DNA from: Trametopsis cervina
Lineage: Eukaryota; Basidiomycota; Agaricomycetes; Polyporales; Irpicaceae
Direction of reading: 5' to 3'
Assembly (NCBI GenBank): GCA_022385755.1
Contig: MU278350.1
Span: 1,254,905 to 1,318,904, forward strand
Length of the DNA stretch: 64,000 bases
The notes below the pieces were generated by a model. The model was not told the origin of the DNA. It did not search any database and was given only the letters and a program-made list of their open reading frames with translations. Position numbers and translations under genes: made by a program. The number at the start of each line of letters is the position of its first letter. The stretch's first letter is position 1. Of this stretch, positions 6,393-54,800 are shown piece by piece.

Positions 6393-8905
6393 ATGGATCC
6401 CGATTGTACCTCCCTCTTCAGCCGGCTGCGACTCCTCGCACCGCTGATGCTGTGGGGCTACGGCACCGCCCAAGGCTTAACCACCTGGGTCTCGAGTGTC
6501 GCTAGTCCTATGGCCGTTTCGGCTGTCTCGTTCGTCCTCTGCTCCTTCACCCATCTTGTGTTGCTCTCTCTTGCGACTGGCACAAATGGAATCCGACAGC
6601 TCGACGTTCCCTCTTCCACATCCACCCGACATGGCTCGTCCGCGGTGTTCACCACCGACCACGTTCTTTACCAACGCTCTGTCGAAGACTCGTTATCGGT
6701 TTTGTATGCTATATTTTATTCTCTATCTATGGTAAGCCTTACCTTTCGAGGGTTCTTTGGTTGCGGCTGACACAGCGGTTCTGCTAGGTTGTTATCCTTT
6801 ATGCGCTCTCGGTCATACGGCGGCTGATCCTCAAGAAGCAAGAATACGAATGCATCATTGAACACAACGCTCGCGTCGCCGCGGCTTGGGAGAAGGAACG
6901 CGAGCGGGCCTGTATTCAAGCAGCTCTGAAGTCTATTGCTGAGGCGCGCAAGAAGAAGGCTGAGGCTCATGCTAAGGCCCTTGAGAGGAGTGCAATGCTT
7001 GAAGTGAGCTGCCCTTCTTCATTGACACACTACGTTCTCTAATCTCTCTAACTACAGGCCCAACTCCATGTTTCCGAATGTGAGCGGGTGGTGAAGAGTG
7101 TAGCGCTGGAGGGGGTGAAGGAGGAGCTGAGGGAGATGGAGGTGCAGGATGTTGTGTTGCACAGCAGGCTTTTGACGGAGCTCGTGGAGGGGTCAAGGTG
7201 GAAGCGACGATACGAAGAGCGCCAAGCTGATGCCAATGCGCAATCGCGACAGGAAGCCGAGCGACGAGAGACGGCGGAGAGGCGACATGCTCAGATTCAA
7301 GCGTGCCAGTTTGTAATCCATGCGATCACGATGCGCGTCCAAACCTCACTCGAGAAGGATCTTGCCGACATCCGCATCACCAACGCCGCTCTTACCGCCC
7401 GACGCGATATGCTCAACGAACGCGCCTCTTCCGTCTCCGCCTCCTTGCAAGCGACCGGCACTCTCTTCCGGACGCGCGTGAGCGTACTCAAACAACGACT
7501 CGACCAGCGCGACGCGCGCTGCGCCGAGCTCGAAAGCCGTCTGGCGGTCTCTACCACGGAGCACGAGACGCAGCTGGAGGAATGCAAGACGGAGCTTTCC
7601 CGCGCGGCCGCCCGCGTACGTACTCGCAAGCAGCAACTCATGTCATCACAGCTTCGCAACATCGCATTCCGCACCGACACTGGCAAGCTGGAGGACCAGA
7701 TCTCGCTCGTCAATCAGGGAGTCGAGGAGGCCGAGGAGAAGCTGGAGTCTGCGGAGAGTGAGTTGTCTACTGAGAGGCAGCAGCACAGAGCAATGAGGGG
7801 CGAGTACTTGGCGAAAAAGCAGGCGGCGGATGATTCGGCGGCCGGTATCACCGCGGAGAACAGGGATCTTCGCGCGCAACTGTCTCTCGCCACTGAAGCA
7901 GCTACACTGGCGACGAAGCTTCAAGGCGACCTCGAGGCTGAGAAGGAGGCTCATAAGCAGCAGATCGCTCGACGGGTCGCTCTGGAAGGGAGTGTGGAGT
8001 TCTTCACCCTGGAGCGCAGAATGCATATGGAGCAGTGTTCGCGGGATTGGGCCGCGGTCAAGGACGACCTTGTGGATCGCGACGGCATTCAACATCGACT
8101 CTCTCTTGTGAGTCAGACGCAAGTATCTGCTGCAGCTGATAGGACATCTGCACTGGAGAAGCTTCAAGACGAGCTCGACGCCGAGAAGCAGTCTCACGCG
8201 CAAGACATCGCCCGGTGCGTGGCCCTCGAAAAGACCCTGGAGGTCTCTGCGCTGGAGTACAAGACGCACATGGAGCAATGTTCGCTGGACCGAACGGAGG
8301 AGAAGGCCGAACGCGATGGTCTCGAGCACAGGTTGGCTCTTGTCAGCGAAGGATTCGGAGAGGCCGAAGCGAGGTTGCAGTGCGACGCTCGCGAGTTGTA
8401 TGTGGAGAGGCAGAGACATCAGGCGACTATCGAGGCATACCGCGCTGGACAGCGGATGGGAGATGGGATGGTAGATCGTCTGATTACGGAGGCTCAAGTG
8501 CTCCGGGAGCAACAACCTCCGAAGACTGAAGAGGTCGCCTGCCTTCAAGATCAAGATCAACCTGGAGTTGAACGGGAATCGCAAGCGATCCCGACGAAGA
8601 CGACCTCGTTCCAGACTCCCCTTCCGATGAGGTTCAAGTCCCATGTCATGGCCGACATCCTCAGGCGGCGGAACTTGGAAAGGAGCAGCAGCAGCAGCAG
8701 GAATGCCTCCCCTCTCTCGGGCTCGCCGGCGAGCACCGCGGGACCTTCGACACCCTCACTCGTGTGGTCTCCTAACAGCTCTATCTCTGCATCTGAAGCC
8801 CCTGGCTTGCAGAGTCCGGAGCCGATGATGTTGGGGATGCTGGAGTCGAAGGATGGGGGGATGGGCAAGGGGATTGAGGAGGAGGCGGATGGCCTGGTGT
8901 TGTAA
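6393..8905 (+). CDS. membrane-anchored long coiled-coil protein, about 800 aa
   Basis: Exons 6393-6731, 6788-7003 and 7058-8905; phases agree and give 800 residues. The N-terminus has two hydrophobic stretches (about residues 9-60 and 97-125); the second spans the exon 1/2 junction and is followed by RRLILKKQEYE. The rest is a near-continuous, charged coiled coil up to about residue 700, then a Ser-rich low-complexity tail. Two copies of a module of about 68 residues occur at about 470-537 and 550-614 (shared ARxVALE, HMEQCSxD, RDGxxHRL, LVS), flanked by two copies of a shorter module with ERQxH. The protein is probably anchored in an intracellular membrane with a cytosolic rod. I do not recognise the family, and tethering is only an inference from the shape. 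It is convergent with the downstream fucosyltransferase-like gene. Confidence 0.75.
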
Positions 8906-11488: not shown

Positions 11489-12897
11489 TCATGCTATCGG
11501 GGGGCCTTTTCGCTTCAGTAGCTCCTTCGCGATTTCATCCGGTTCGCCTGATGTGTCAGGTAACCAAAATGCCTATCGGCAAACGGGTAAGGCTTCGCAT
11601 CAAAGGCACAACGCGGGTGCACTTACCAACTCCTGTCCTGCTGTGCACATCATCGCAAAGCGAGGGTTAAACCGAACGCATCGTGATGGACCTGGGTGTC
11701 CCTCCAGCTTGCCCAGAGGTTTGAGTATCAGCGGATGAGCGTTGGGATCTGGTGGCCCCTCCTTCGCGGGAAGATTTTGGACGTCCCACACGACCACTTT
11801 GCCATCCAAACTTCCACTGATGACGAACTTGCTGTCTGGAGTCCAGCAAACCTCTTCTCCGCTGCTGCCCTTCGAAGGCTCCATCGTCTCTTTCGCATTC
11901 AATCTGCGCCGTTCCAGGCCTATGTGGCCTTCCAGTTTCGCGAGTAAATGGCCTTCGAAGCTATCCAGAATATAGTGGGCATTGCCAGAGCAGCCGACCA
12001 GGAGGTACTTTCCATTTGTCGAGAAAGATAGAGAGGACATGAAGATTGGTCGGGGCGGGTAGCTGATCTGGCTGAGTGTAGGGTCGTCTAGCGTTATGAC
12101 CAAGAATGGAGCCTTGTCGAAGTGCGCTTGGTCATAGAGCAGGATACGAGAATACTCGTTGACAGCGACCGCAAAGACGAGACCTGTAGAGTCATACGCA
12201 ACGATGGGAGACGCCGGCAAGTTCAGCAAACCTCGACAGTTTGGACTACGGAGATCCCAGAGTCTCACTGTCTTGTCCATGGACCCCGACATGAAGCCGT
12301 CGTCGACGGGCGACATCTCCAGGGATATGACCTTGCCTTTATGCCCTTTGAAGTACTGGAGATATTTGTTGTCGTGCAGCGAGTGGTACCGCACTGTGTC
12401 ATCTTCTTTCGTTGAGGCGTGTATTATGGCTGTGTTCTTATGTGTAAAGCGTGGGAGGTCGACACCGTATTTCTTTGAATAGAATGTTTTCGCGGCCCTG
12501 GATGTATTAACATAAATCATAATGAACAATCAAGGTACATCCAGGGGGAACTTGCTTGCCGGTTCTGCATGTGTACAGACGGAACGTCTCGTCGTCCGAC
12601 GCAGTCAACACCTGGTCCCCTCTGTCATCAAATGCAATGCCAGTAATTTGTCTCGGCTCTTGAGGTTGTCCTGGTTTGCTACCGGGAGATGTTGGTGGTA
12701 CAGGTTCTACGGAGTTCTTGAAGATCCTGGCCGGCTTGAACTTCCCCTACACGCACATGGTGGTCCTGAGTACGAAGTTGGCGTAGTTGCAGATCCGTGT
12801 CACGTACCATGATGGGAGGGGCGAGGCTGAGAGTAGGCTGCATCGTATTCGTTCCATTGGTATTGCTGCTCGACGGTGTAGGTGCTATGGCGGACAT
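11489..12897 (-). CDS. SWD2: WD40 protein, Swd2/WDR82 homolog
   Basis: Exons 12897-12808, 12746-12556, 12497-11627 and 11572-11489 give 411 residues. After a short Ser/Thr-rich N-terminus comes KFKPARIFKN, then WD40 repeats with GIAFDDRGDQVLTASDDET, YSKKYGVDLPRFTH, SGSMDKTVRLWDLR and CRGLLNLPASPIVAYDSTG; the end is AFWLPDTSGEPDE. This is the Swd2/WDR82 signature. In yeast the protein belongs to the COMPASS H3K4 methyltransferase and to the APT part of the cleavage/polyadenylation factor. Only one choice keeps the frame between exons 2 and 3: a GC donor (GCAAGT at 12555) spliced to CAG, which restores TGKAAKTFYSKKYG. It is divergent from Rpb5, with only 160 bases between the start codons, so they may share a promoter. 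Confidence 0.9.
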
Positions 12898-18336: not shown

Positions 18337-19601
18337 TCAAATGATTGTCCTCACTCTAGAAGGGCGTGTATCAGCGCATATTTCTTCAGACGCCCCCAGC
18401 TGGTTATCAATGTATGAAAACTTACCCTCCTTAGGATGGTACTCACGAGCCGGTGACAGCTCAACAACCAAAGTCTCCCTGATCTTACTATTCTCGCTGC
18501 CAAAGTAGCGCTGGGTACCGAAGCTCCACTCCAAGTTTCCAGCAACCCAGCATTCCATGGCCATAACATATTTGCTGTGTCATTTGTTAAATAAAAAGAT
18601 TCTGCCACATTGAACGGTAACAGAATCAACTCACGCAACGACAGCATCCATTTCTCCTCCGAAAGAGGGCAGATCTTTCTTGCTGGCCTCGAAGATGTCG
18701 TAAAGCTCCTTGAAGTGGACTCCGACGTAATCAGAGGCCTCCTGCAAGTTAATATCCTTCTCCCTTTGGAGGACCGTGAGGATGTTGTTAGTCAGATGAC
18801 CCATAGCTTGCTCCATGTTGTAGGAATAGACGTCCTGTATGACGAGTAATCAGTACATAATTTGCCATATTATATGCATGTCTTACGTTGGCCCAGGTGA
18901 TCATGTCAACAGCGGCCAGGTGCATGCGCATAAACACCGGGTGCTCAAAAATTTCGTCGGGGAGGTCAATGTCGAGCAGGTAACCAATCAAGCCGAAGCA
19001 GTATCGAACGGCGCTATTCTCGCGGCGCAGGCGGTCGTAGGCCGGGACGTCAAGTACGATGTTCTTCTCACGGAGCTCCGCTTCGACGCCGAAGGCATTG
19101 ATGTAGGCCTCGCTGTGCTTCATGAAGCGGCGAAGAGTCGCTTCCCCCGCATAGGGAAAGAAACGAGCCTTAAAGCTGAATTTCGGTCAGAAAAATCGCG
19201 CCGTTCAGAACAGAGTTCACGTACTCTTTGGTCATCTTGCACAGCACGGATCCGTCGTCGTACTGATCGTCCTTGAGGGTGTTGAGCACAATCGCGCCCG
19301 TAGCCACAGCGTCCTTGCCGCTTTGCTCGTCGCTGATCTCGTCAATTGTGAATAACAAGTTGACGAAATCGCAGGCGGTGCGGAGCTGTTCAGGCCCGGT
19401 GTACGGGTAGACCCACGCGCAGAGGAGCTCACTGCCCCCTTGCTTGAAGAACTCGAGCTTCTTGCCAGTGAAGACGTGGTAGCTCAGAACCCACTCAGCG
19501 GAACCAGCGCGAGCGTATTCGTAGTGTGGGTTGAAGGAGGCTTGCCAGTGGCAAAGTGCATGGAGGTCTGGGAGGCGGTAAATGCGAGCAGAAGTCGACA
19601 T
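18337..19601 (-). CDS. sesquiterpene synthase (class I terpene cyclase), copy 2
   Basis: Exons 19601-19225, 19175-18887, 18834-18635 and 18574 onward. Metal motifs are D87-E88-I89-S90-D91 and N222-D-x-x-S226-x-x-x-E230, with GTQRYFG carrying the conserved RY. It is clearly paralogous to the gene at 16885, but has one extra intron (18575-18634) that the other lacks. The 3' end is ambiguous. Read unspliced the frame ends at 18337 (367 residues). A GTAAGT donor at 18425 joined to TCTAG at 18356 would instead end the protein soon after EYHPKE, at about 343 residues, closer to the size of copy 1; I favour the spliced form. The product is not predictable. Both copies would draw on farnesyl diphosphate from the mevalonate pathway. 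Confidence 0.88.
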
Positions 19602-20487
19602 GGTTTGGAAGGATTCTGAGAGTTGCAGGTGTGCGGTGTGGATTCGCTTGTCTGTCTGGCCAGCAACATCGTATACCAGGTCTTGCTTAAGTACAGGTCT
19701 ATGAACGCCTTGTTATGCGCCTTGGCCAGCCAATCGTCCTCTCGGCAAGCAGAATGGTGGCCTTGCTTCTGTCATGTAATCGTAGGATGAGACAGCGCAC
19801 ACAGTTATGCGAGGGCAAGGCCATGTCTCCAAACACATCAATGGAGCGCCGGTTGTCCACCAGTCTGAATGAAACCGGATAGTGTCGACCGTCAGCTGCG
19901 GCAAAAAATTGTGTCCGAGACGCACTGACCTAGTTTTGAGCACTCAGAACGAATACGCGCCCCAAGCGCACTGCCTAGGGGAGGAGCGGCTAGCCGCTCC
20001 CGGTCGGAGGCAAACCATCGTGCTCTGTTTTCACTCATCCTCCGACCTCCTCATTAGTATGGAGAGTTCTTAAATGAACGGCGGCCCGGATAGTGCTGTA
20101 AGTCGAGGAAATAATCGAACCTCTGACGGATGGTCGTATTTGACTTGGGTGACAGTAAGGGTATACGATTTGAGATTTGCTCATGGCAAATATTGGCGAA
20201 AGGCTGAGTTCCATTGTGATTCATCGCGCTAGCGCAATATCGTATCCGTCTGGCAACTGTGTGTTGCGTTTGGACGAGCGCACAAACAGGAAAGTGCCTG
20301 ATGGAGGGAATAACAGGTTCAGTATATATACGATCTTAACGCAAGGCGAAGAAGGGACTCAATGTACGCATTAAGGGGAGTTTAAAGATAGAATGCCGCA
20401 AAGTGGGAGAATATCCATACCTTTTGAACCGAAAGTCGAGTACTGATGGTGCTGCAGCAAGATCGTAGAGTTCTGACCTATTTCTTC
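19602..20487. other. upstream region of terpene synthase copy 2
   Basis: Contains the promoter of the minus-strand synthase. An 18-base perfect palindrome sits at 19983-20000. No gene supported. Confidence 0.45.
19983..20000. promoter_or_regulatory. perfect 18-bp palindrome with a CGG-N4-CCG core
   Basis: GGAGCGGCTAGCCGCTCC equals its own reverse complement. Inverted CGG triplets are the usual half-sites of fungal Zn(II)2Cys6 regulators. It lies about 380 bases upstream of the start of terpene synthase copy 2. Function is inferred from form and position only. Confidence 0.4.
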
Positions 20488-21087
20488 TCATTGGGGATGA
20501 TGTCCGCAGCCTCCACACACACCTTTCCATGAAATGAATGATTTTTCATGATGCATTGACTTGGGTAGAATCGTCGTAATGACTGAGGACCGTGCTAGCA
20601 GTGCTGTATTGGTGGCCGGCTTGGAGGACATGAGCAAAAGCGGATAGCGCTGTGGCATCGTTGTAGGAAGTTCATTGTTGTATTGTGAACGAGAACAGTT
20701 TGGCGGCGATGAATGTATCTGAAAGCTATATTGACTATACTTACAACTTTTGACGAACCGGAACCCGAAGTTGTACTTGTGGTTGCTGAACTTGACTGCG
20801 CCCATAAGGGATGCTGGCGCTAATTACAATCAAACGTAGTTGGGCTCAGAACATGACGCAGTTTCGAAGTTGTGACGAACTTTTGTCTCAGAAAGTAGCA
20901 TACTGCATTTCTCAGATGCAACATCCCTTTCGCCGCAAATACCGAAAGTCGTAACTCCCCAACCATCCCGTGCTGACTCAAACTCGAACTCGAACGATGA
21001 GTGAGCGCCAACGATGGTGTGATCATTGCATGTATGAGAACCCGGGCGCCACTGTGAGAGTGGCTCGACTTTCTTTCCTTGACTCAT
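20488..21087 (-). CDS. unresolved hypothetical gene
   Basis: A frame starting at 21087 (MSQGKKVEPLSQW) runs about 85 codons with balanced composition (FEFEFESARDGWGV, FGICGERDVASEK). A second open segment lies at 20488-20805, and a good GTAAGT donor with a TTTCAG acceptor falls inside it. Several splice combinations are possible, including one that gives a Ser/Thr-rich middle part, and I cannot choose among them. No family is recognised. The start lies 105 bases from the divergent start of the fusion gene. It may be a real small gene or chance open frames. Confidence 0.3.
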
Positions 21088-21191
21088 AACTACAACCACA
21101 CGACCTACAAAAAGCGGCTAAGTGCTGTGTGCGTGACGAGACTAGTATACCTCATATTCTACTCTGTTACGATCACATTCTGTCTGCTGGG

Positions 21192-24100
21192 ATGGACACC
21201 AATACCAGTACCTCACATTACAACCTCCCCACTCCGGTACCAGATTCACCAGCTTTCTCTCGCAAGCCCTACAGATTCTCGACTCTATGCGCCACTGTAG
21301 AGTCTCCGAACTCTTCGCACCAGGATCAGCACGGAAGTTCTAGCGTTCCTATCTACCAAACTGCGACCTTCAAGGGAATAGAGGGTCAGTATGATTATAC
21401 GAGAAGTGGTAATCCGACCAGAACGCATCTCGGTGAGTAATGCTACCTATACCTGTGAACTAGCAAACTCACGTAACCTTTGAAGAGCATCACATCGCCA
21501 AGATTTCCTCCGCTCAGCATGCCTTTGCTGTGTCTTCTGGAATGGCGGCGCTAGATATCATCACTCGTATCTTGCAGCCTGGTACCGAAGTTATCGCTGG
21601 AGACGATATCTACGGTGGTACGAATCGACTTCTCAGCTATATCCGTACGCACATGGGCGTTACGGTTCACCACGTTAATGTTCAGAAGCCCTCCAACGTC
21701 ATTCCGTTCCTCAAGCCTGGCAAGACAGCAATGGTTATTCTGGAGACGCCTGGAAATCCTCTGCTCAAAATTGTCGATATAGAGGCTATCAGCGCGCTGG
21801 TCAAGGAGACTTGCGAGGACGCTATTGTCGTTGTTGATAACACAATGATGAGCCCGTACCTGCAACGTCCGTTGGAGCACGGAGCAGATATCGTCTATGA
21901 CAGTGCAACAAAGTATCTCAGTGGTCACCACGACTTGATGGCGGGTGTCATTACCTGCAACCGGGACGACCTCGCAAAGGTACATATTTCAACTAATGGA
22001 ATAAGCATTCTATATACTCATCGCGCCGTAGAAAATAGCATTCACCATCAACGCCGTCGGGAACGCTCTCACCCCCTTCGACTCTTTCCTGCTATTGCGC
22101 GGAACTAAGACTTTAGCTATCCGAATGGACCGCCAACAGTCCACAGCTATGCTTGTTGCACAGATGCTTGAGAAATTAGGCTTCCTCGTGCATTACCCAG
22201 GGCTTCCGAACCATCCAGGGCGGGAAATACATGAACGCATCGCTGATGGTCTGCATTACATCTACTTTGCCGACGTAAACCTGTGGCTGACTGACACGCA
22301 GGCTATGGCGCCGTCTTATCATTTGAGACTGGCGACAAGGAACTCAGTGAGCGCATCGTCGGAGCTACCAGGCTTTGGGGTATCAGTGTCAGCTTTGGCT
22401 GTGTCAACAGTCTGATCAGCATGCCCTGTGTTATGTCGTAAGTGGTGCTTCAGCATCTGCAACAGCCTGAGTCTTACATCAATGCAGTCACGCCTCTATA
22501 GACCCTGCCACACGAGCCGAGCGTGGCCTCCCCGAGGACCTCATCCGTCTCTGTGTCGGTATCGAGGACCCTGCGGATCTTCTTGATGACCTGAGGCACG
22601 CCCTGTTACAAGCCGGCGCTATCACGTTGGCTTCCAACGACTTCATTCGTATCCCCACTGTTGTCAACAAGGCTGCCGAGAAGCTTGTTCTGGGAGAGCC
22701 TCGCATCGAGAGGCAGAAGGAACAGGCTGAATATGAGTGGCTCGTAAGTGCGCCAGGCAAAGTTATCCTCTTTGGAGAGCATGCAGTAGTACATGGCGTG
22801 GTGCGTGCCGTTCGCTATCTCTTGTTTGAGCCGGTTACTTATAATTGCTCCAGACTGCTCTTGCTGCGTCAGTGGATCTTCGGTGCTACGGTCTGGCCAC
22901 GCCGCGGTCGGACAACAAGATATCTGTGGCATTTACCAACATCAGTAACTTCTATCACGAATGGGATATTGATAAGCTCCCATGGGACGCTGTGACCCCC
23001 GTTACGCCAGGCGAGAAGCATCCTGATGCATTGGACCAACGGCTACTGGATGCTATCAATGAGAGAGCTCTGCCACCCGCGCATGAGATGGTGCCCAAGT
23101 CTCACCCTGCGGCGTTAGCTTTCCTATACTTGTACATGGTCTTGAGCCATTCCAAACGACGGTAAGCTGCCGCGACGTCTCTTACGTTCGTAGTATTGAT
23201 TGCTGTCGAGCTAGACCTGCATTCTCATTTACTGCGCGATCTACACTACCTGTAGGTGCTGGTCTAGGTTCCTCGGCCGCGTTCTCGGCCTGCATTGCAA
23301 CTGCCATCCTCCTTCAGTATTCACGCATCCAGGCCCCCCAGCCTCCAGCACCTAGCCGCCCCCCAACGGACACCGACCCGGGCCACCTGCACATCTCCCA
23401 TGCGGGCCGACGAGCGATCACTCAAAGCCTCGCGGAAGAGATTAACAATTGGGCATACGTTTCGGAGCAGGTTCTGCACGGCAATCCAAGCGGAGTTGAC
23501 AATTCGATCGTCGTTTTTGGTGGCGCGCTTTCATACACCAAGCCAGGTTTCGGCCGGTTCGGAAAGAAGGTTGGAATGGACAAGGTCTCAGGGTGCGTGG
23601 CAATGGCACGCAGAACGGGCCGCTGGCGCTGATCAGTATTGCACAGTTTCAAATCTCTCAAGTTCCTGTTGACCGACTCCAAGATCGGACGCAATACGAA
23701 ACAGCTCGTAGCTAAAGTCGCTCAAAAGAAGATGGAGGTAGATTCTATTTCATTTTTGAGTTTATCAACGACCTGACTGTAAATTTACCAGGACCCTGAC
23801 GCTGTCAATGAGATGTTCACTGCAATCCAGAGTATCAGCGACGAGGCCAGACGGGCTCTAGACGACCCTGAAATGTCACGAGAAGAGCTGCTCAACGCTT
23901 TGTCTGTAAGTGTACCAGGGATATATCCAATTCCGCTGTGTAAACTCACGCCATGGATACAGGCCTATATTACGGAAAATCACACCTACCTTGTCCGCCT
24001 CGGTGTATCTCACGAGACGCTCGAGGATATCCGGGCAAAATGTGCGAGCTACAGGCTGAGCACCAAGCTGACGGGTGCCGGCGGCGGAGGCTGCGCAGTT

Positions 24101-24411
24101 ACTCTCGTCCCAGATGGTATGTCTATTGCATCATTTCTATCTCCCCGTGGCTTATGTCGCCGTTCATAGGTTTCCCGGAGGGTGACCTGACTGCCCTGCT
24201 GCGCGATTTGCAAACCGCAAACTTCGACCCTTACCTCACGTCCGTTGGTGGTTCCGGCTTGGGCATCCTCTCTCCACACGGTCGCAAGCCTCTGGACGCT
24301 GATGCTGACGGAACGTCCTCCATTCAGGGCCTGCAGGATCATTTCAGCTCGATCAAGGATGAAGACTTGACGCGCTGGGTTGAGGGCCGGGGACCGTGGA
24401 TGTATGTGTAA
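21192..24411 (+). CDS. cystathionine beta-lyase - mevalonate kinase fusion, 895 aa
   Basis: Eleven exons (21192-21432, 21486-21979, 22032-22248, 22302-22437, 22488-22800, 22854-23161, 23215-23592, 23647-23737, 23792-23905, 23963-24116, 24170-24411) total 2688 bases. Residues 1 to about 405 are a Cys/Met-metabolism PLP enzyme: YDYTRSGNPTR at 67-77, PLP lysine K223 in SATKYLSGH, ending DLIRLCVGIEDPADLLDDL. About 40 linker residues follow, then EWLVSAPGKVILFGEH from 446 begins a complete mevalonate kinase with GHMP motif PVGAGLGSSA (582-591), GNPSGVDNSI and TGAGGGGCAVTL near the end. Exon 5 encodes both the lyase end and the kinase start, with no stop and no in-frame Met between. Expected activities are cystathionine to homocysteine and ATP-dependent mevalonate phosphorylation. 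Both halves keep the family motifs I can check, so it looks functional; the fusion itself needs RNA or protein proof. Confidence 0.88.
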
Positions 24412-24927
24412 AGCTTCTCTCCGTGTGCAATGTGCGAAGGAATACGATGACGTAGAATTGGGTGTCTCAGTGTTGTAAATTAGCGGTTGATCTTGCCCTC
24501 GGAATGCTAGTCTTGAGGCGTGCGAATGACGCAAGTGCTCGCGCTCCGTCTATGCGCTTGTTTCGTTCATATTCAGCAGAGTCGTGTGTGTACCGTGTGC
24601 CACTGGGTCGATTGCTTGGTACCAGCAGGGTCCGCTGCGCTCCGTGCATACCGATGACTATTGCAACGTTGCCCGGCGATAATCCTTGCAATTGATCTCC
24701 GCCAATACTCCTGTGCGCTGCACGTTGTGAGCACGCGGTACACAGCTGCGGTGCAGATCCTGACCTCGTTGACATAACGTCGCACGGCGTATATACCACA
24801 ACCGCATTGCGAATTCAACGACTTGCAGTCTGTCGCCGAACAATGTGAATGGCATCACTTTCCGCATATGGATGAGTACAACAAGCGTCACAGAGTGTGA
24901 CCGTAAAGTATATCCCCTCTTGAGCGG
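24412..24927. other. intergenic region
   Basis: Terminator side of the fusion gene and promoter of the Vps71 gene. No other gene supported. Confidence 0.45.
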
Positions 24928-25654
24928 ATGCCACCACGACGTCAGCGTGCGTAGCCTTCATTTGGATGTAGAAGAGAGATAACTCAACCGTGAATATGAC
25001 AGACAGCCGTCCGTAAGACTGAAAATGCACGCTCGACGCATCTCGACGAAGCGGTAATCGTCAAACGCACGAAGAGGCATCTGGATGAACTCGAGGTAGG
25101 CCATGTTCCAACAGACTCCTCACGTCAATCGGATATGAACACGAGTGTATATGTTTTTTCGCAGCGCTCGAACTACTCCGAGCCGTCGACGCTTTTCGGA
25201 CACGCTGACGAAGACGACGAGACCGGCGGCGGAGGTGGCGGCGGTCGCGCCACCAAAGGACGCGCTCGCCAACCCATCTCCGACAAGAGAGCGGCAGAAC
25301 AAGGCAGGAAGAAGAAGTCGACGATGAACATCCGAACGGCCGTGCTGTATAAGAAGAATCTCGCTCTTCTCACCGACGAGTCCGTGAGTAGATGACGCTG
25401 TTTACATATTTTACGTCTCCTCACATATATCTTTTCCTTCTGTTCACCTGCTTTAGGGCATCGCAGCGTACCCAGCAACGGTACCAACGTATTTGACCGC
25501 TGGTGCACCTCCGCCACGACAGCCGCCTAGGATGCTCTGCACGGTGTGCGGGTATTGGGGAAAATATCGGTGCAAGAAGTGTGGCATGGCATACTGCGAT
25601 ATGAATTGCGAGAGTGTTCATGACGAGACCAGATGTGAACGCAGGGTTGTCTGA
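24928..25654 (+). CDS. VPS71: HIT zinc-finger protein Vps71/Swc6 (ZNHIT1-like)
   Basis: Exons 24928-24946, 25007-25095, 25165-25383 and 25457-25654 give 174 residues. The 19-base first exon supplies MPPRRQ, continued as PVRKTEN; this is the only in-frame start I found. A basic helix (VKRTKRHLDELERSNY) is followed by a glycine-rich stretch and a C-terminal HIT zinc finger: C-x2-C (CTVCG), C-x2-C (CKKCG), YCDMNC and H-x3-RC. In yeast Vps71/Swc6 is a subunit of the SWR1 complex that places histone H2A.Z. Identification rests on the C-terminal position of the finger and the overall size. Confidence 0.82.
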
Positions 25655-26129
25655 TCTACGTACCTTTTCATTCAGCACAGCACATGTTTAATCTTTGTCT
25701 AATCAGATAGCTTCTACTCATTTATTCGCACAACTCCTTCGCCGTCCGCAGCATTGGATTTGAGCTTTTGCACAGTATTGTCATTCGTCCAACAGTCGCC
25801 ACACAATAAAGAGCACTATAAACTAACGGAGTACTAATAAAGAAGTAGTAGGTATAGAATATGCAGATCGGAAGGTATAAATGCGACAGACGATAGCAAC
25901 GTCGAAGGGGCAGTACTGGTACCTTAATGTACCCTCGGGGAGCAAAGAAGTAGAAGTCTATGAGTGCGTGCTTTTGTGCACCTTGCCCGTGGAAACGTCA
26001 AGAGGGTGGAGGCGATGATGGATGGTGGTGGCGGACTTAGGATGACAGAGCAAATTATGATAGTACAGTGGGTAGTGTTGGTTCGTGGGGTCATGAACTC
26101 TGGTCATGAGCAACGTGACGGGACTGAAA
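25655..26129. other. convergent intergenic region
   Basis: Shared 3' region of the Vps71 and Erg3 genes. Nothing else seen. Confidence 0.5.
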
Positions 26130-27454
26130 TCACTGGTCTTTGCCCAGCGCAGCCTTCCTCTTCTTTTCTTCTGCCTCCTTTACCTCGAGCAAAGGATCCA
26201 GCTCGGATGCAGGCTGGCGGTACGAGCCACCCATACGGTCGGGCAAAGTGAAGTACTATATGGAGAACACATCGTGTGAGCAGACAGCGAGTCTAGAGCA
26301 ATGATAGGATACGAACCTGGCCGTAATTCACTGTGAAATAGAGATGATGCAATGTATGATGCGCAGGGCCATTAATGATCTTCTCTAGGGGGTGTCCCGT
26401 TATCATATCAGAGTCATGGATCTAAATGGCATTGTTAGACTTTCTTGCGGACAAGGTGCACATATGCAACTCACGAAGATAGTCCAGCAGTTGATGAATG
26501 TGAATAGCCCAAGGAAGAGCTTTTGGTGAAGAGGGAATACATAGATGAATAAGTGGTACGGAATGGACTGGAGGTAGCCGTCAAGTGGGTGGAACGCGTA
26601 AGAAGCGAAGGGGGTGGGAACTATAAGACATGTATATCAGTAAACGCGTTTGATTACACGGAAGTGAGAAACGGAGGGATGAACATGGTAATCCACATGT
26701 TAGAATAACAACGAAAGGGTGACGTACTCAACCACTTGTGGTGCGGCTTGTGCAGCCACTTGTAGCAAATTGGATGATGCTCCCAACGATGAATCCAGTA
26801 AATGGAGTAGTCGGTAAACACAAGGAACCTGACGGAACACGCGTCAGAAAAGTGGTGTGAGACGTTGCAGCCGAAAAAGACAACTCACAGAACAACAGAG
26901 AAGATCAGGTACGCCCAGCCGTACTCGTTAACGTCCGTGTACACCTTCGAGTGTCCGCGCACCTCGCCCACAAACCAGGGGAGAGTCAGGACTATCATCG
27001 TCGGCATGGCCTTCAGACTGGTCTGAATCTCCAGTTTGACCTGGTTTTTGAGGAACCGCGGGTGTTTCATCATGTCATGGTTGAAAACAAACGCATACGA
27101 GAACCCAGCGAAGAGGAAGTAGAGGAGGTGGACGCCAACGGCGGTCAGAATACCGAGGGAAATGGTCTGACGCAGGATGTAATCCCGCGGCCACGCCGAT
27201 GCGTATGGTATTGAGGCTATCTCTGACTGGAGGATATCGGCCGAAAGCGGCGGATGTGGCAAGTACGACACAATATTCGACCATGCAGATATTGAGGGTT
27301 TGGCTGCGCTGAGCACCGGGAACGACGTGTTAAACGAGGACGCCGCGCTGAAGATTGTTGAGTTTGCTGATCCAGCAAAAGCTGAGACCGGGACGAGGTG
27401 CGCATACACCTTGTCCAGTACGTAGGTGTCTGCGAGGTTCAGGAGAAGATCCAT
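26130..27454 (-). CDS. ERG3: sterol C-5 desaturase (Erg3)
   Basis: Five exons (27454-26889, 26828-26728, 26620-26475, 26421-26317, 26255-26130) encode 347 residues. Several hydrophobic segments and three histidine clusters of the di-iron membrane desaturase family are present: WIHRWEHHP at about 200-208, LHKPHHKWL, and [17 protein letters not shown] followed by [12 protein letters not shown], the ending typical of Erg3. It should introduce the C5-C6 double bond of ergosterol in the ER membrane using oxygen and cytochrome b5. The basic C-terminus ([15 protein letters not shown]) may aid ER retention. It lies near the mevalonate kinase fusion and the terpene synthases, so three isoprenoid functions are close together. 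Confidence 0.94.
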
Positions 27455-38996: not shown

Positions 38997-40247
38997 GCGA
39001 CGGTGGCGGTCTCAGGATGTGTGGTGTGGGTGTTTGGGCACTGTACAGTCACATGTGCGGACCCCTGAGTGTGGCCTTGTGCGTCGGAGGGGATGTAGTT
39101 TGTCACTCGTTTCGTTTCGTTGTAGAATAATTAATGTGAGAATAAAACTAATCGATCAGGCACTTGGAGATCAAAACCGCACGGAATGGTTGTTTTACCA
39201 GTAGCTGGGCTGATTAGGGGAACCTGCAAGGAGGCAGAGTGTGTGGCCAGGCGTAACAGATGCTACTGGCGTCACACACACCATCTGGAAAGCCGGGAGG
39301 ACCGAACTCCGGGCGGCGTGCCTGACGCCTCCGGGATGACGGAGGAAGGCCGAGCGTGGTGCACAATCGGCACGAGTTCGGCTTGCAAGCCAAGTGTGAC
39401 TGGAAAAATCACAGCTGGGCGACATGACGGACGGCGGCGCTGGTGGGCATCTGAGTAGCGGTGGGATGCGGTCGGCGTTGCTGGGGATTGCGGGCGACGA
39501 CGTCGAGCGCATCTGGCGCATCTCACAGGGGCAGCCCCTGCCGTGACATGGGCATTGCAGACGTGCAGGCACCCAGGGCGGAGACGACACGGTTATATGG
39601 GCGTCTGGAGTAGTGGATCGGAGATAGCCGCGTGTGCGATGAGTGTTGCAGCAGCGCAGTGCGTGGTCAGGAGAAAGAGGGGGGTCTCTCTCTGGCTGGG
39701 TGTGTCACGGCGTTGTTGCAGCGATGGACGTAGACCTGCTGCGTCGTGGACTGACGTTGCGTGAGACGCGGTGCGGGAATGGCGGGCTGGTGGGATGGCT
39801 GTGAGCTGAGACGCCAGACAGTGGGATTTTGGACTCATGGGATTGGGTTTGCGACGAGAACAGCTGCTTACCACATCGTTGCTGCCCTTGGCTGCCGCAG
39901 CACACGGGAATTATTGTGAGTTGTGTGGGCAGTCTGTTACGGTGCGGTTAGCGTGTTACCGTCCGTTACGGTGCAGTGGAAGCTGTTACGGTCACACATA
40001 TGGCAAAAATAAGCAGGGAACATAACCCGATCGACGCCAACAATGGGTGCAGCACGGTGCCGGTGGACAGAGATTCACAGCGTGCCGATAGCAGTCGGCG
40101 GTATGTCTATATCTGTCCTATGCTCCCTTCATCGGCCGCCCCTGCTGTTCCCCGCTATTTCATCTCCCTTACCGCCATCTACTATCTGCTACTGCTATTA
40201 AGCCTGACCTCCCGTCGTCGCGTCTGCGACTGTCCTCACCACCACTC
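38997..40247. other. 1.25 kb intergenic region
   Basis: 3' region of SSL2 and promoter plus leader of the bZIP gene. It contains a TTACGGTGCGGTTAGCGT / TTACCGTCCGTTACGGTG-like short repeat around 39937-39990. Open frames here lack recognisable features. Confidence 0.4.
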
Positions 40248-41412
40248 ATGTCCTCCAAGCGTGGCCGCAAGCGCAACGACAACCTCCCCCCAAACCGTGC
40301 AAGAGATGTACAGAGAGCCTTTCGTGCCCGGCGAGCCGCGCACCTCGAGGTCCGTTCCGTTCTCTGCCCTCTGTCCCTCCCCCGTGTACTCACCGCAGGC
40401 ACCCCGCATCCGCCAATGCCGTCCCCTCCGCTGCACGCTCGTTCGTGTCTGCACACTCGTCCTTGCCTCGTCTCTCTTCTTTCCTCTCCAGGCGTTGGAA
40501 CAACGGGTTGCAGAGCTGGAAGATGAGAACAACACTCTGCGAGCAGCGCTCAGCCTCCCTCCCGCGAATCGTCCTCCTCTAGGCAAGGGCCCAACTGGCA
40601 AAGACAAGCCTAAACCGTATGCACCCAGAGGTCCTCCATCACTTTCTTCGCTAATAACATCCGAACCCATTGCATCGGGTTCATGTCTGGCATCCGGCAG
40701 TAGCCTCTCTTCAATGGCCATGCCCCCCACCAGTCGTACAGAGTCGCCGTCGGACGGCTCGACCAGGACAAACTCGCTCTCCCCGGCCTCGCTCTCGACA
40801 GTCCTCCACTCAGCAGGACAAGGCCCCGTCGTGTCCGACGGGTGGGACGACGGCATGTTTGGAGGGAGAGACAGGTCGGAGGTGCAGCCCTCGCCAGCGT
40901 CCAATTCGTATCCCGTCACCCCCGTATCGAGCACCGCCAGCCAGTCCCCGTACTCCTTCTCCAACCCGGGCGGCTCATCATCGAGGCCGCCAGTGTCCTC
41001 TTACGTGATGCCACAAAACTATCCCCACAACGCAGACAGGCCCGCGGGGGAGGGCTTCTCTGAGAACATGTTCGACCGGGGATTCCCCTTTACACGGTCA
41101 GCGTACTCTACTGGCGGCCACGATACGTCGCATTCCTTCCACGCACAATCGCCGACGTCCTCGGTCGCCCTGCCCCATCGCGGAGGCGCCAATGTGCAGA
41201 ACACGATGACTTTCGCGCATCGAAGGTCCATCACCGAGCCCCAGGCGCTGCGTTCCGCCCTAATGGGCCAATTGCCGGCCATGATGGGGCACGCGCACTC
41301 GCACTCGAGCGGACAGAAGGGCGCAAACATGACGGAGACCGTGGGCCACTTGAGGGCAGCAGAGTTTGACGTCGATCCTAGAGTAAACCAGATGAATACT
41401 CTCCCGTCGTAA
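40248..41412 (+). CDS. bZIP transcription factor, Yap-like basic region
   Basis: Two exons (40248-40349 and 40492-41412) encode 340 residues. The basic region is SKRGRKRNDNLPPNRARDVQ followed by RAFRARRAAHLEAL; the zipper has leucines at 36, 43 and 50, and the exon junction falls at its start. The rest is Ser/Pro-rich and disordered, with HAHSHSS near the end. QRAFR resembles Yap/Pap1-type stress regulators. At the position of the invariant Asn (eight before R26) there is Ala18; an Asn is two residues earlier. I do not assign a specific ortholog. The donor of exon 1 is GTCCGT. Confidence 0.82.
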
Positions 41413-48828: not shown

Positions 48829-51800
48829 ATGGAACCTGCCAAACTATACGGTGCTCTGAACCAGGATTCAAGACCTAGTGCATTGGCGAGCGGATCTTCA
48901 AGGCCTTCGGACGCTTCAACCTCGTCTACGACTCCATCTTTGACACTGAACAATGTCGCCTTCGCTCTCTCGGCTACTGCGCCCCACATAACCTTGTCTC
49001 CTGCACCTCGCTTGTCTGCGCCTCATGGCTCTGCGAGGAACAATCCAAGGCGACCCTCGACTGCCTCATCCGCAGAGGACAAGCTGGTGCGACTGCCGTC
49101 TTCTCGTTCGTCTCCTGTAGATCTCTCTGCGATGTCAACACCGAGCTTAGGCTCTCAGGACGGAGATAGTAGGCCCTTCACGCGTAATTCAAGCGAGCAT
49201 ACATCTATCGAAGAGGTGAACCGAAAGGCAGCCGAGGCAGTGGCCGGTATGCGCGCGGAGGCATCCCGTCTGGCAGGAGCAGGTGAGCAGTGACTTAAGT
49301 GGCGCGCGACGCGCATATTGCTCATATTTTCTAGTGGAAATGCTGCCGTCCCCCTTCGACCCTTCGCCTTCCGACGAGCCTCTTGCGATGAGTCTGGGTG
49401 AACACTACAGCTCTCAAGTGGACTATGACTGGGCAACGTTCATCACCGCGTACGCGCAAGGCAGATGGGACCCGCTAAAGACCCCACAACCACCGAGGTC
49501 GCATCTCTCGCCTATGAATCACGCCCCGGCTTCTAGACACCCTTCATTGGGTCTAGAATCGGTGGAGCTAATGGCATCTCCAGAGACCACGTCCCATGAG
49601 GCTCCTTGGGAAACAGGCTATCTCGAAAGATCTTCTAGCGACTATATTCAGGAAGTTGTGGCGAAATCTCAGACATTGACGAACTCCGCACCTCCGCAAT
49701 ATCATGTTCCAAACACATTGCCGCAAGGTCAAGGCGCCCCCGCCATTCCCGCATTGCCAGACAATGGGATAGCGTCCAGGCGGTCTATGCCGCTTCATTT
49801 GGGGTTTTCGCATCGCATGCGGAATTCTTTTGCTGATATGCGCTCATCAACCCTTCACGCGAACACTACGGAGCCACACAGACCATCTAGTTTCACAAAC
49901 GCTGATGTCACGACATCAGCGGCCGCAATACGGTTGGCTGCTGCACGTGTTTCAATTGCCCCACTTGCATTGCCCTCCCCCGAGCATGAGCTTACTGATC
50001 CAATGCGCGGTGTTACAGCAACTATACCTGGTTCGCATCCCGTACCAGAGCATTTCTTGCCGAAGTCCCCTGGTACTCTCCGCAAGAGTCGGCTGAGTAG
50101 CTTTTGGCAGGGGACGCAAGATATTGAAGACTATCGACTTCCCACAATTGAAGGTAGCCCGCCCGGATCTGTCGATGACCATGGCTCCGCTGATGAACCG
50201 GAGGCCACGACATCGCATTTGCCTTTTGCTCTCCCTTTGTTGCCTCCCGCGACGGCCCCTGTGAGGGGTTCGCACGACCAGGAAGAGGAGGATTATTTCG
50301 GAATAGATGGTCAACAGGGTTCTGATGGTATGTCTGCTAACTACAGTGAATCTGCGAGCTCCGCTAGCACAATACCACGCCCCGACTCGGAAATGTCTCG
50401 CCAGATGTCTGCCCCACCATTTGACTCTGAACCTTCAACGGTGCCTGCGATACCTAGGCGTATCTGTCTCACGCGACAAGCTTCAGCTCCACTTCCAACC
50501 TTGTCCCTGTACGAACGGCGGTTACAGTCTACTCGGCCGTCGTCCGAAAGCTCCGTTATGTCGCGTGCGAGTAGATCAGCAAAGGAAGAACAAATGTTCT
50601 CAGAACTCGGTTACCTTGCACCTCCTAATCCTCCGGATGAGCTAGAACGCAGAAGGGCGCTGTACAAGTAAGCATGATTAGTTGCATTCTCACAAAGAAT
50701 GACCGTACTCATTGTGTAGATTCAATATTTGGAATACGGGCCATGATATGAACTTTGACCGCATTGCGCATCTAGTCAAACTAGTGTTCAATACTCGCAG
50801 TGTAGTCATATCGTTAATCGACGGAACGGAAGAGTGAGTGCATTTCCTGCCCCCCTTGCTTCGCGCATCCTGATCACCTTGCAAAGGTTCTTCAAATCAG
50901 AATGTAAGCTCATTAGCTTGTGAGAGGTAGTCAACCGATGACCTACCATCATTAGCCGGGTTCGCTGTCCAGAACATGCCAAGGTCAAGTTCTCTTGATG
51001 CTCATGCTATCCTGCAACGGTTAGTCTCACAGTCGCCGAAGATCCCCTGACGAGCTTAGAAATAAATGACAGAGATGATGAGCCTACTGTGATCCTGGAC
51101 GCCCAAGACGACTGGCGTTTCGCGAGAAATGTACGTCATACATTCGTCGTACTACGATCCTCTGCATGTTGACACGTCCCTGTATAGCCGCTTGTGACTG
51201 GACCTCCACACATAAGATTTTATGCCGGTTGTCCTCTGCGTACACAGGATGGGCACAATATTGGGACGTGAGTATGGTCACCACAATCTGAGATTAAGAC
51301 GCTAGACAAGGTTATTAGGCTTTCCATCATGGACGACAACCCTCGGCGAGAGTTCAATCCGCGGCAGAGACATACTTTGAAGGAATTTGCTGTAAGGCAC
51401 CGTTTATTTGCGCTAAACCATGTCTAACTGATCAATAGCAAATTGCAATGCGAGAATTGGAGCTGTGGCGTGATAAGGTACGCTTTCGTTGGTTTGACAG
51501 TCGGGAGACGGGGATCATACCTGTGGTGTGCAGATCCAACTCCGCATCCGAGACCGCATTCAAAATTCAGTACGTGTTCACGAATACCATGAAGGGTGAG
51601 ATACCGTTGATTTAATGTCCTGGTTTAGATGGAGCAGTTCACTCGCGAATGTCTTGAAGTGGATAAGGATGTCAGCGGAGACAAAAAGGAAGGCCAAGGT
51701 CTGTTCGCCGGTACTTCGATGGAGAAGATCTACGAACGCGCGGCGAAGCTCGTAAAACGCACCCTTGATGTCGAAGGCGCCATCGTGATGGACGTGTCTC

Positions 51801-54800
51801 ACGTCGATGTGGTCGAGAATATGTCGGCGGAATGTTCGACGTCGATAACCATCCACAGTGACAACCCGCAAATAGGGACGGTCAACCGGTTGTTGAACGC
51901 CGATGAATTCGCGAAGCTGCAAGAGTTCTTCAATAAGTCTCCCGACGGGAAGATATGCGAAGGAGTCCTACCAGCTGGTTTGCGGCCGTTTCTTCCTACG
52001 CAGATTCAGTATGCCCTGGGTAATTCTTGATTCATCTCAGGCGACCCAACACTCGTACTGACTACCCTGATCAGTCGTACCCATCTTCAACATCGACAAG
52101 CGTCCTTTCGCTATTCTGTGTGCTTACAGTACTGGCGAGCGAACTACGCTATTTGTGAGCCCAAATATTTAGTCCTAAGAACCATCTTTACTGATGCTGA
52201 TATAGCTTGAGGGACACGAGCTGTCGTACCTGAGAGCGATAGGTATGGTCCACAAACGCCTTCCCGGGAAGCTGTGCTGACTTCTTTTGTTAGGCGTAAT
52301 CATACTGTCTGCGGTTCTCAAAAGACGGATGATCCTCGCTGACAAAGCCAAGAGTCTCTTCATTTCAAAGTGAGTGATTCTGACATTTGTCGTAAGGCCC
52401 AAGTCAAACCTAGATTATAGCATTTCACATGAGCTTCGTACGCCACTACATGGTGTAAGTATAGACATCAGTTACGATATACCCCGAAGTCTAAAAAGTC
52501 TAACAGATACTGGCATCCGCCGAACTGCTTTCCGACACGAGGCTCGATCATAGCCAAGCATCGTTCCTTCAGACAGTACAAGCTTGCGGCACCTCATTAG
52601 TAGAGACAGTGAATCACGTCCTCGATTTCACCAAGTTGAGCGGAAATGCGAAGTCGGGAGGTGTGGAGAACGTCGTCCAGCGTAGCAAGTATGTTATTCA
52701 TCAGACTCGTGCCAAGCGCCTAGTACTGACGAGAGACAGGGTTGACCTCATGCAGCTTGTGGAAGAGGCGACGGAAGGATGCTGGATTGGTCATCGCGCA
52801 CGCATGTTCACCTCAGAGATTGGCAGTGTCTATTCTCCTCCCAAACCGGACAAGAGCGCGGTAATGTCCCCTCAACAGAGCAAATTCGTCGAAACCGTGA
52901 TTGATATAGGACATGTCGACACGGTAAGTTCGGCTCACCTATTGGATATGGATCCTGCTTATAGCCTGTTTCAAGATGGGATGGACTGTGAGATGCGAAA
53001 AGGGCGGGATCCGCCGAGTTCTGATGAACCTTTTCGGAAACAGCTTGAAGTTCACTACCGTAAGTGCTCTCAGAGTATATTTAAGCACTGTGCTCAATCC
53101 TATTTGTCACAGGATGGATATGTTCACGTCATGCTGCGCCAATATCCTCATGGCCCTAATGAGGTGAAGATTGAATTATCGGTGATCGACACGGGAAAGG
53201 TGAGTGAGGGCTGCGCGCTGCCCTGATTATACATACTGAAATCAATCGCTTCAGGGCATTAGTCAGAATTTTCTCAAGGTTAGTGTTCAGGACCTTCAAA
53301 CGGTCTCACGGTTGCTGACTGACCTTCCCGCCAGAACGGGCTTTTCCATCCTTTTTCTCAAGAGAATCCGTTACAGACGGGCACCGGTCTAGGTCTTGCT
53401 ATCGTGAACAGTATCGTGAGGTCAAGTAGCGTGGACGGCAAGGTAGACGTATGGAGCACTGAAGGCCTCGGCACGGAAATCAAGGTTACCTTCACCGCTG
53501 AAGTTGTCAAAGACGACGAGGCCCCGAAGCACGATCTAGACCTACTCAATGTCTACAACTCGCTGCAAAGACCCTCGGTGGCCCTTGTCGGGTTTGACAT
53601 GCAACACCGTGGCACCCAACTGCTGCACAATGTGGTATCTGACTACATCGTCAGCCGTTGGGGATTCGTTATGGCACAAGGCTCAGATGAAGGGGATATC
53701 GTGATCGTCAACGAAGATATCACCCCAGTCGTACGTGCGACAGAAGAGAAACATCTGCATCAGGCCTTTATATTGCTCTCGGCATCCAGAGGCAATGCAC
53801 GGCTAATGAACACTCTCACGGACTTCGAGTCACTGGGTGGCTTTTGTCGCATTGTTTACAAGCCCTTTGGTCCACAGAGGCTGTATTCGGCCCTCAAGTT
53901 ATGCCTCCATGCCTTGAATATGGCGCATGCGACTCGCTTGAGGTCCCAGGAAGATATCGATCAACGAGCGTTGCCGACCTTACAGTCCCTGTCGGCGACC
54001 GACGAACTCCCTTCGTCTACGTTACCCCGACGATTTTCGGAAGATAAAAAGGTTCTGACTTTGAGACCGCCGCTTGGCCCTCGATCTTTCACCGCCCATC
54101 CTTTGTCGAACTGGGCTGATTTGGGCTCTCCATCGGAACAGGACGAACTCCACGAGGATGACTTGCGTTCGGAATCTCCCGTCTTCTCACAAAGTCCTTC
54201 TAGTCCAACGGTTTCGATAGGCACAGGAGGTACACTGCTCAAGACTTCCGTGGGCAGCTTGCAGCCGAAGCGTTCCATTCGTGTTCTCGTTGTTGAAGAC
54301 AATGCTATTCTTCGTCATGTCCTGTGCGTATACATCACCACCTCACTGGGTTTATATTCTGACGACGATTCGAACAGTGTGAAGTGGTTGAAACACAAAG
54401 TAAGTGACTCGATATATTCAAATTTAGCCCGGCATGTCGCTGAAGCTGTGTAGGGTTACGATTTTCGCGAAGCTGTTGATGGACTAGAGGGTGTTCGTAC
54501 TTTCGAGACAGAGGGCTTCTTTGAGTGAGTATGGGTTCACTCAACTCAACGCTACAGCAGTCTAACTTTGCATCAGCGTGGTGTTGGTAGACATGTCCAT
54601 GCCCGTATTAGACGGTATGAGCTCTGCTTGATATCTCGCGCTACCAGTATTCACGTCATATGTAGGGGTGGGCGCAACAAGCAGGATGCGGCAAGTTGAA
54701 AACACTCGCAAAAACTCATCACACCTAGAACCGCAAGTAAATTCAAGAATATTGGCTCTCACGGGCATGTCGTCTCTGGAAGACAAACGAAGGGCCTTTG

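What the first reader, a model, noticed from the sequence alone, without database searches (positions are those of the whole stretch)
21192..24411. In-frame fusion of cystathionine beta-lyase and mevalonate kinase
The reading frame passes from the lyase C-terminus (LIRLCVGIEDPADLLDDL) through about 40 residues into the mevalonate kinase N-terminus (LVSAPGKVILFGEHAVVHG) inside one exon (22488-22800). There is no stop, no intergenic gap and no in-frame Met from which the kinase could start alone. All eleven exons keep phase, and both halves keep the active-site motifs I can check. I know of no described PLP lyase joined to a GHMP kinase of the isoprenoid pathway. It would tie sulfur amino-acid metabolism to mevalonate use in one polypeptide.
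Basis: partly seen in the sequence, partly recalled or inferred. Interest (0 to 1): 0.88.

Follow-up and report, generated by a model that had tools for sequence, protein, structure and literature searches.

The report
Mushroom cystathionine-lyase/mevalonate-kinase fusion, already known
The gene really does join two unrelated enzymes, one for making methionine and one for making sterols, but this joined gene is the usual form in basidiomycete fungi and was published in 2012; why the two were joined is still unknown.

Summary
Eleven exons (21192-24411) give one 895-residue frame: cystathionine beta-lyase (CBL, about 42-402), linker (403-447), mevalonate kinase (MVK, 448-895). The hand-built protein is identical to a deposited Trametopsis cervina protein. 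It is neither an assembly error nor a local oddity: all 120 listed proteins (itself included) cover at least 89% of the fused query, and one search lists the fusion in Pucciniomycotina, Ustilaginomycotina and Dacrymycetes too. In a tree, 16 fused MVK domains part from 10 stand-alone fungal MVKs by one change (support 93/87, below the tool's star). No second MVK was found in this genome. The catalytic residues checked are invariant where the sequence is present.

The claim of novelty fails. The fusion was described twice in 2012: as 'metC-MVK' (PMC3342255) and as basidiomycete STR3 with a C-terminal MVK (PMC3468542); Lignosus and a Pleurocybella transcript followed. Function remains open: I saw no enzyme assay in eight paper searches and passages of nine papers. 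I read it as an ancient bifunctional enzyme. A sterol-methionine link is possible, untested.

The parts
21192..22605 (+). Cystathionine beta-lyase part (exons 1-4 and start of exon 5): 21192-21432, 21486-21979, 22032-22248, 22302-22437, 22488-22605; residues 1-402
   Evidence: Exon model; PF01053 42-402; TIGR01329 above cut-off; aligned to Arabidopsis CBL 1ibj, 342 bits
22606..22740 (+). Inter-domain linker, residues 403-447, wholly inside exon 5
   Evidence: Between the Pfam/PDB match ends; 43-60 residues (counted over columns 403-449) and 45% mean pairwise identity in the 64 aligned rows, longer in Violaceomyces and Ceraceosorus; predicted partly helical with low confidence
22741..24411 (+). 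Mevalonate kinase part (end of exon 5 and exons 6-11): 22741-22800, 22854-23161, 23215-23592, 23647-23737, 23792-23905, 23963-24116, 24170-24411; residues 448-895 and stop
   Evidence: PF00288 and PF08544 over cut-off; rat MVK 1kvk aligned to residues 448-849; no other MVK found in the genome
21902..21934 (+). PLP-lysine motif SATKYLSGHHD (residues 220-230, lysine K223 at 21911-21913) of the lyase
   Evidence: K223 in 62 of the 62 rows that have the column, of 64; aligned to SATKFIAGH of 1ibj; positions computed from the exon model

Best explanation
This is the usual basidiomycete form of both genes: one bifunctional polypeptide, CBL at the N-terminus and MVK at the C-terminus, made from one mRNA. 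The lyase half splits cystathionine to homocysteine on the way to methionine; the kinase half phosphorylates mevalonate on the way to sterols and other isoprenoids. The two reactions share no intermediate, so the fusion most likely fixes the amounts, regulation and place of the two enzymes rather than channelling a substrate. The fusion probably arose once, before the three basidiomycete subphyla separated, and replaced the separate genes. Shown: one frame, identity to the deposited protein, conservation, no second MVK found, checked residues intact. Inferred: both activities, one uncleaved protein in the cell, single origin, and the selective reason.
For: Gene model and identity to P0001. 120 of the 120 listed proteins, the window's own included, cover 89-100% of the fused query (617 passed E 0.001, list cut at 120). 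120 of the 120 listed for the fused query P0156 carry PF01053 and PF00288 by my reading, 54 of them new. Lyase-end and kinase-start motifs follow each other with a linker between in 15 of 16 fusions from three subphyla (the lyase motif was not recognised in P0282); tree with a single change between 16 fused and 10 stand-alone MVKs, support 93/87. Kinase half finds only its own exons in the genome, then one match at E 0.11 and 28% identity. The best other CBL-like locus is 41% identical; its largest open frame scores best with a cystathionine gamma-synthase model, and that of a second locus with O-acetylhomoserine sulfhydrylase, both as fragments below the curated cut-offs. MVK K454, S589, S590, E654, D665 in 64 of 64 rows; CBL Y69, R71 in 58 of 58 and K223 in 62 of 62 rows that have the column. 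Seven of the 120 sit on longest contigs of 2883-3178 bases that leave 177-424 bases beyond the coding sequence, less than the 532 bases of introns in the window gene, which points to spliced transcripts (my arithmetic). A Pleurocybella transcriptome unigene is fused. Same statements in two 2012 papers.
Against: No enzyme assay or protein-size measurement was seen or could be made. Cleavage or a separate kinase mRNA in vivo is not excluded for this species. The literature names exceptions: Laccaria bicolor and Postia placenta; the second is met by a 909-residue fused Postia protein (P0015), the first I could not check. No Tremellomycetes or Wallemiomycetes appeared by name in the three lists, each cut at 120. 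19 of 64 aligned rows have a Met in the linker. The tree branch that separates fused from stand-alone kinases is not starred by the tool, two rows are long-branched (Puccinia, Gonapodya), and the root is a midpoint. The structure model is weak around the PLP lysine (residues 222-231 and 347-367 under pLDDT 50).
Confidence: 0.9

Rival explanations
1. Artefact: an assembly or gene-model error that runs two neighbouring genes together.
For: Fused models can be made by automatic annotation; the deposited protein here is a prediction too.
Against: The open frame is read directly from the genome inside one exon; the same joining recurs in the 120 listed proteins and across subphyla, on short, probably spliced contigs and in a published transcriptome unigene.
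Confidence: 0.01
2. Fused gene, but separate proteins: the polypeptide is cut in the variable linker, or a second mRNA or internal start makes the kinase alone.
For: The linker is less conserved than both domains (45% mean identity against 82% and 66%) and varies in length; 19 of 64 aligned rows have a Met there.
Against: No in-frame Met in the linker of this gene, nor in 45 of the 64 rows, itself included. Among the first 80 shorter MVK hits, 34 have more than 14 residues before the MVK motif; 33 of these still carry lyase or linker sequence (24 by regular expression, 9 by eye) and one (P0184) does not. None of this bears directly on protein cleavage.
Confidence: 0.07
3. One half is no longer an enzyme and serves as a scaffold or sensor for the other.
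For: No assay of either half was seen.
Against: Checked catalytic residues of both halves are invariant; the lyase half scores above the curated CBL cut-off; no other MVK was found, and an MVK is needed for sterols (established knowledge).
Confidence: 0.02

Closest known systems
metC-MVK fusion of Ganoderma lucidum and other basidiomycetes, 12 in all (Liu et al. 2012, PMC3342255; passages seen)
   Same: Same domain order, about 886 residues on average there, reported as the only MVK and the only best hit to CBL in those genomes
   Different: Nothing of substance found; the window gene is one more member (895 residues)
Basidiomycete STR3 orthologues with a C-terminal mevalonate kinase (PMC3468542, 2012; passages seen)
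   Same: Same fusion, found from the lyase side; no stand-alone MVK seen in basidiomycetes; separate and not clustered in ascomycetes
   Different: That paper excepted Postia placenta; a fused Postia protein is listed (P0015)
Arabidopsis cystathionine beta-lyase, PDB 1ibj
   Same: N-terminal half, E 7.3e-101, with the same YDYTRSGNPTR and SATK motifs
   Different: No kinase domain
Rat mevalonate kinase, PDB 1kvk
   Same: C-terminal half, E 7.3e-61, with K13, E193 and D204 of the chain kept
   Different: No lyase domain; gapped against about residues 612-641 of the fusion. That it is from rat is recalled; the listing says mammalian

Membership tests
metC-MVK / STR3-MVK basidiomycete fusion | CBL at the N-terminus and MVK at the C-terminus in one frame | tested here: met
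metC-MVK / STR3-MVK basidiomycete fusion | Length near the published values (about 886 on average; 918 in Lignosus) | tested here: met
   895 residues; published values
metC-MVK / STR3-MVK basidiomycete fusion | Only MVK in the genome | tested here: met
   five matches lie in this gene's own exons; one other at E 0.11, 28% identity. The assembly may be incomplete
metC-MVK / STR3-MVK basidiomycete fusion | Only CBL in the genome | tested here: inconclusive
   No close second copy: outside the gene the best match is 41% identical, and the two loci scored fit other subfamilies better; weaker PF01053 loci on C2, C3 near 1577 kb, C6 and C17 were not classified
metC-MVK / STR3-MVK basidiomycete fusion | Host is a basidiomycete | tested here: met
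   Identical protein named Trametopsis cervina; Basidiomycota, Polyporales, Irpicaceae
metC-MVK / STR3-MVK basidiomycete fusion | One transcript and one protein in the cell | tested here: inconclusive
   Short contigs and a published unigene in relatives; nothing for this species
Cystathionine beta-lyase | Curated equivalog model above cut-off and PLP lysine kept | tested here: met
   TIGR01329 522.6 bits against 487.5; K223
Cystathionine beta-lyase | Catalytic activity on cystathionine | not testable with these tools
   Needs an assay
Mevalonate kinase | GHMP N and C domains, MVK motifs and catalytic residues | tested here: met
   best fold match 1kvk
Mevalonate kinase | Catalytic activity on mevalonate | not testable with these tools
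   Needs an assay or complementation

The most novel reading that the evidence does not exclude
The fusion hard-wires methionine supply to sterol output. If the only CBL is part of the only MVK, the sterol regulator SREBP, reported to bind and induce mevalonate kinase in Ganoderma lingzhi (PMC9810662, passages), would also raise homocysteine and methionine synthesis and so S-adenosylmethionine, which sterol C24-methylation consumes. If so, one promoter has balanced carbon skeleton and methyl donor across Basidiomycota. That the Ganoderma lingzhi gene g3941 is the fused gene is inferred from relatives, not seen; that paper's text does not hold the word cystathionine.
Probability: 0.2. Interest if true: 0.6.

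Novelty: already known. Interest (0 to 1): 0.27.

Why it matters
The fusion itself is known, so this locus adds a member. It still matters in three ways. Much of a phylum carries a fusion of two enzymes from unrelated pathways, with no tested reason that I saw. A knockout or knockdown meant for one enzyme in such a fungus would hit both, which affects the reading of mevalonate-pathway engineering and of methionine mutants. And a fusion shared by three subphyla may serve as a rare genomic marker for Basidiomycota.

Tried and rejected
Assembly or gene-model error: rejected. Separate second copies: none found for MVK; of the other PLP-lyase loci in the genome, the two scored fit different enzymes better and the rest were not classified. 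Stand-alone MVK in other basidiomycetes: one search searched with the 449-residue kinase half, so candidates were limited to about 0.55-1.75 times that length. Of its first 80 hits (P0121-P0200), 38 hold the SAPGK motif; 4 of these have 14 or fewer residues before it (Umbelopsis, Morchella, Sugiyamaella, one unnamed); of the other 34, 24 match a lyase-tail expression, 9 more show lyase or linker sequence by eye, and P0184 is unresolved. 42 of the 80 lack the motif and say nothing; hits 81-120 were not examined this way. P0174, which looked stand-alone, begins with a stretch like the linker of P0176. Xanthophyllomyces proteomics for the size of the kinase: the passages seen give no mass; its genome paper lists ERG12, and the one place with 'fusion' there is a reference. 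In a 2026 review of the mevalonate pathway 'basidiomycet' was not found, and the passages with 'fusion', 'fused' and 'bifunctional' do not concern this gene. Searches for follow-up papers: one search found none, only the 2012 Ganoderma paper, only papers already in hand, one search gave the SREBP paper. Bacterial-type promoter/terminator scan: nothing found, and not suited to a fungus. Structure model: mean pLDDT 73.7, pTM 0.53; both folds are recognised, but the arrangement of the two halves is not reliable, so no channel or interface is argued from it. ARAGORN: no tRNA.

Full report
WHAT WAS CHECKED. I read 19500-26500 on the plus strand and the open frames of both strands, and built the gene by hand. 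With exons 21192-21432, 21486-21979, 22032-22248, 22302-22437, 22488-22800, 22854-23161, 23215-23592, 23647-23737, 23792-23905, 23963-24116 and 24170-24411, all ten introns are 50-57 bases long with GT donors and AG acceptors, and the joined frame is 895 residues with one stop at its end. A first attempt with another acceptor for exon 3 was out of frame.

IDENTITY. The product matches deposited protein P0001, 'cystathionine beta-lyase [Trametopsis cervina]', at 100% over 895 residues. Trametopsis cervina is in Agaricomycetes, Polyporales, Irpicaceae. Pfam finds Cys_Met_Meta_PP at 42-402 (E 1.5e-127) and GHMP N and C domains in the second half, over their cut-offs. NCBIfam's equivalog model for cystathionine beta-lyase, TIGR01329, is passed (522.6 against 487.5 bits). 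The nearest solved structures by sequence are Arabidopsis CBL 1ibj (342 bits, residues 45-400) and mevalonate kinase 1kvk (209.7 bits for the kinase half). In the alignments the lyase keeps YDYTRSGNPTR and SATK, and the kinase keeps K13, E193 and D204 of 1kvk at residues 454, 654 and 665. That Tyr127, Arg129 and the PLP lysine are catalytic in CBL, and Lys13, Glu193 and Asp204 in MVK, is recalled; their positions are read from the alignments.

CONSERVATION. In the first search 617 proteins passed E 0.001 among the 7999 candidates scored, and the best 120 were listed. By reading the list, all 120 (the window's own included) carry PF01053, 119 also carry a GHMP domain, the exception (P0115) still covers 100% of the query, and the lowest coverage is 89% (P0111). 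I aligned 64 proteins, a hand-picked set including fragments. Mean pairwise identity is 82.5% in the lyase part (42-402), 44.9% in the linker, 66.1% in the kinase (448-850) and 36.9% in the tail. K454, S589, S590, E654 and D665 are in 64 of 64 rows; Y69 and R71 in 58 of 58 and K223 in 62 of 62 rows that have the column. The linker (columns 403-449) is 43-60 residues long in this set, and 19 of 64 rows have a Met in it; it is longer in Violaceomyces and Ceraceosorus.

DEPTH. A search with an unnamed, more distant fusion (P0156, itself truncated) listed 120 proteins, all with PF01053 and PF00288 by my reading, 54 of them new. They include Rhodotorula, Sporobolomyces, Microbotryum, Mixia, Atractiella, Puccinia and Phakopsora (Pucciniomycotina), Malassezia, Violaceomyces and Ceraceosorus (Ustilaginomycotina), and Calocera (Dacrymycetes), besides many Agaricomycetes (subphyla and classes recalled, except for Trametopsis). 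In a tree of the kinase domain from 16 chosen fused proteins of these groups and 10 chosen stand-alone kinases of Ascomycota, Mucoromycota and others, the label changes once, with support 93/87 and in 93% of bootstrap trees; the branch is not starred by the tool, two rows are long, and the root is a midpoint. One origin before the subphyla split is the simplest reading. No Tremellomycetes or Wallemiomycetes were named in the listed rows, and the lists are cut at 120.

OTHER COPIES IN THIS GENOME. The kinase half finds five matches in its own exons, then one at E 0.11 with 28% identity. PF00288 rings at four places, of which the window is one; the other three were not matched by the kinase half, and I did not name them. 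The lyase half finds its own exons, then loci on C37 (up to 41% identity) and C34 (36%). The largest open frame of the first scores best with a cystathionine gamma-synthase model, and that of the second with O-acetylhomoserine sulfhydrylase; both are gene fragments below the curated cut-offs. Other weaker PF01053 loci were listed and not classified.

ONE MESSAGE? Seven of the 120 (P0006, P0020, P0051, P0056, P0059, P0081, P0106) have longest contigs of 2883-3178 bases that leave 177-424 bases beyond the coding sequence (arithmetic). The window gene has 532 bases of introns, so these are probably spliced transcripts, though the source does not say so and the introns of those species are not known to me. 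A Pleurocybella mycelial unigene was reported as fused.

STRUCTURE. AlphaFold2 with the 64-row alignment gave mean pLDDT 73.7 and pTM 0.53, with residues 1-90, part of the linker (424-437) and two lyase stretches including the PLP-lysine region (222-231, 347-367) under 50. Foldseek against the PDB puts 1kvk first (TM by target 0.81) and 1ibj seventh (0.72, rmsd 7.1). The two folds are recognised; their arrangement is not known.

LITERATURE. Liu et al. 2012 (PMC3342255, passages) found the fusion in 12 basidiomycetes except Laccaria bicolor, named it metC-MVK, and stated that it is the only MVK and the only gene with a best hit to CBL. The rice-blast paper of October 2012 (PMC3468542, passages) found the same from the lyase side in all basidiomycetes examined except Postia placenta, saw no stand-alone MVK in basidiomycetes, and reported the two genes separate and apparently unclustered in ascomycetes. 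The Lignosus genome (PMC4129116, passages) and the Pleurocybella data (PMC3720577, passages) repeat it. P0015, a 909-residue fused Postia placenta protein, removes one of the two exceptions. Eight paper searches and passages of nine papers showed me no enzyme assay of the fused protein; the library holds open-licence papers only, and the papers merely listed were not opened.

MECHANISM. Most likely both halves work as the ordinary enzymes and the fusion fixes their ratio, regulation and location. Nothing I saw suggests substrate channelling, since the reactions share no metabolite. A possible reason is that sterol synthesis needs both isoprenoid flux and S-adenosylmethionine for C24-methylation (established knowledge); SREBP is reported to bind and induce the mevalonate kinase gene in Ganoderma lingzhi (PMC9810662, passages), which would then also drive the lyase. 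This is inference and untested.

VERDICT. A correct observation of a real, conserved and already published gene fusion; this locus is an ordinary member. Interest is modest and rests on the open question of why these fungi keep it.

Noticed in passing
window 25457-25651 (+): Downstream open frame with a HIT zinc finger (PF04438, 37.4 bits over the cut-off of 24.7), an ordinary neighbour.
   Followed up: partly
window 11603-12529 (-): Open frame with WD40 repeats.
   Followed up: no
window 53323-54450 (+): Open frame with a weak HATPase_c match just over the cut-off (26.9 against 26.4 bits), perhaps part of a histidine kinase or HSP90-like gene.
   Followed up: no
window 7052-8902 (+), 39952-41409 (+), 49220-50668 (+): Long open frames (483-617 codons) with no Pfam match at E 1e-5; long open frames on the other strand overlap the first two.
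   Followed up: no
window 22744-22749 (+): The bases GTAAGT that encode Val-Ser of the kinase motif VSAPGK look like a strong 5' splice donor (consensus recalled), in an exon that must not be cut there; whether it is ever used is unknown.
   Followed up: no
P0146, P0151, P0152, P0167 (Lentinula): Lentinula entries of 412-739 residues look like broken or mis-modelled copies of the fusion, so single-domain 'mevalonate kinase' names in mushrooms can be fragments.
   Followed up: partly
P0282 (Malassezia psittaci): A 1249-residue relative, about 350 residues longer than most others, with extra Pfam labels; it may hold a further domain or a joined gene model.
   Followed up: no
P0184: Unnamed 507-residue kinase whose last 60 of 89 residues before the SAPGK motif resemble neither the lyase nor the linker; the one possible stand-alone basidiomycete-like kinase among those examined.
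   Followed up: no
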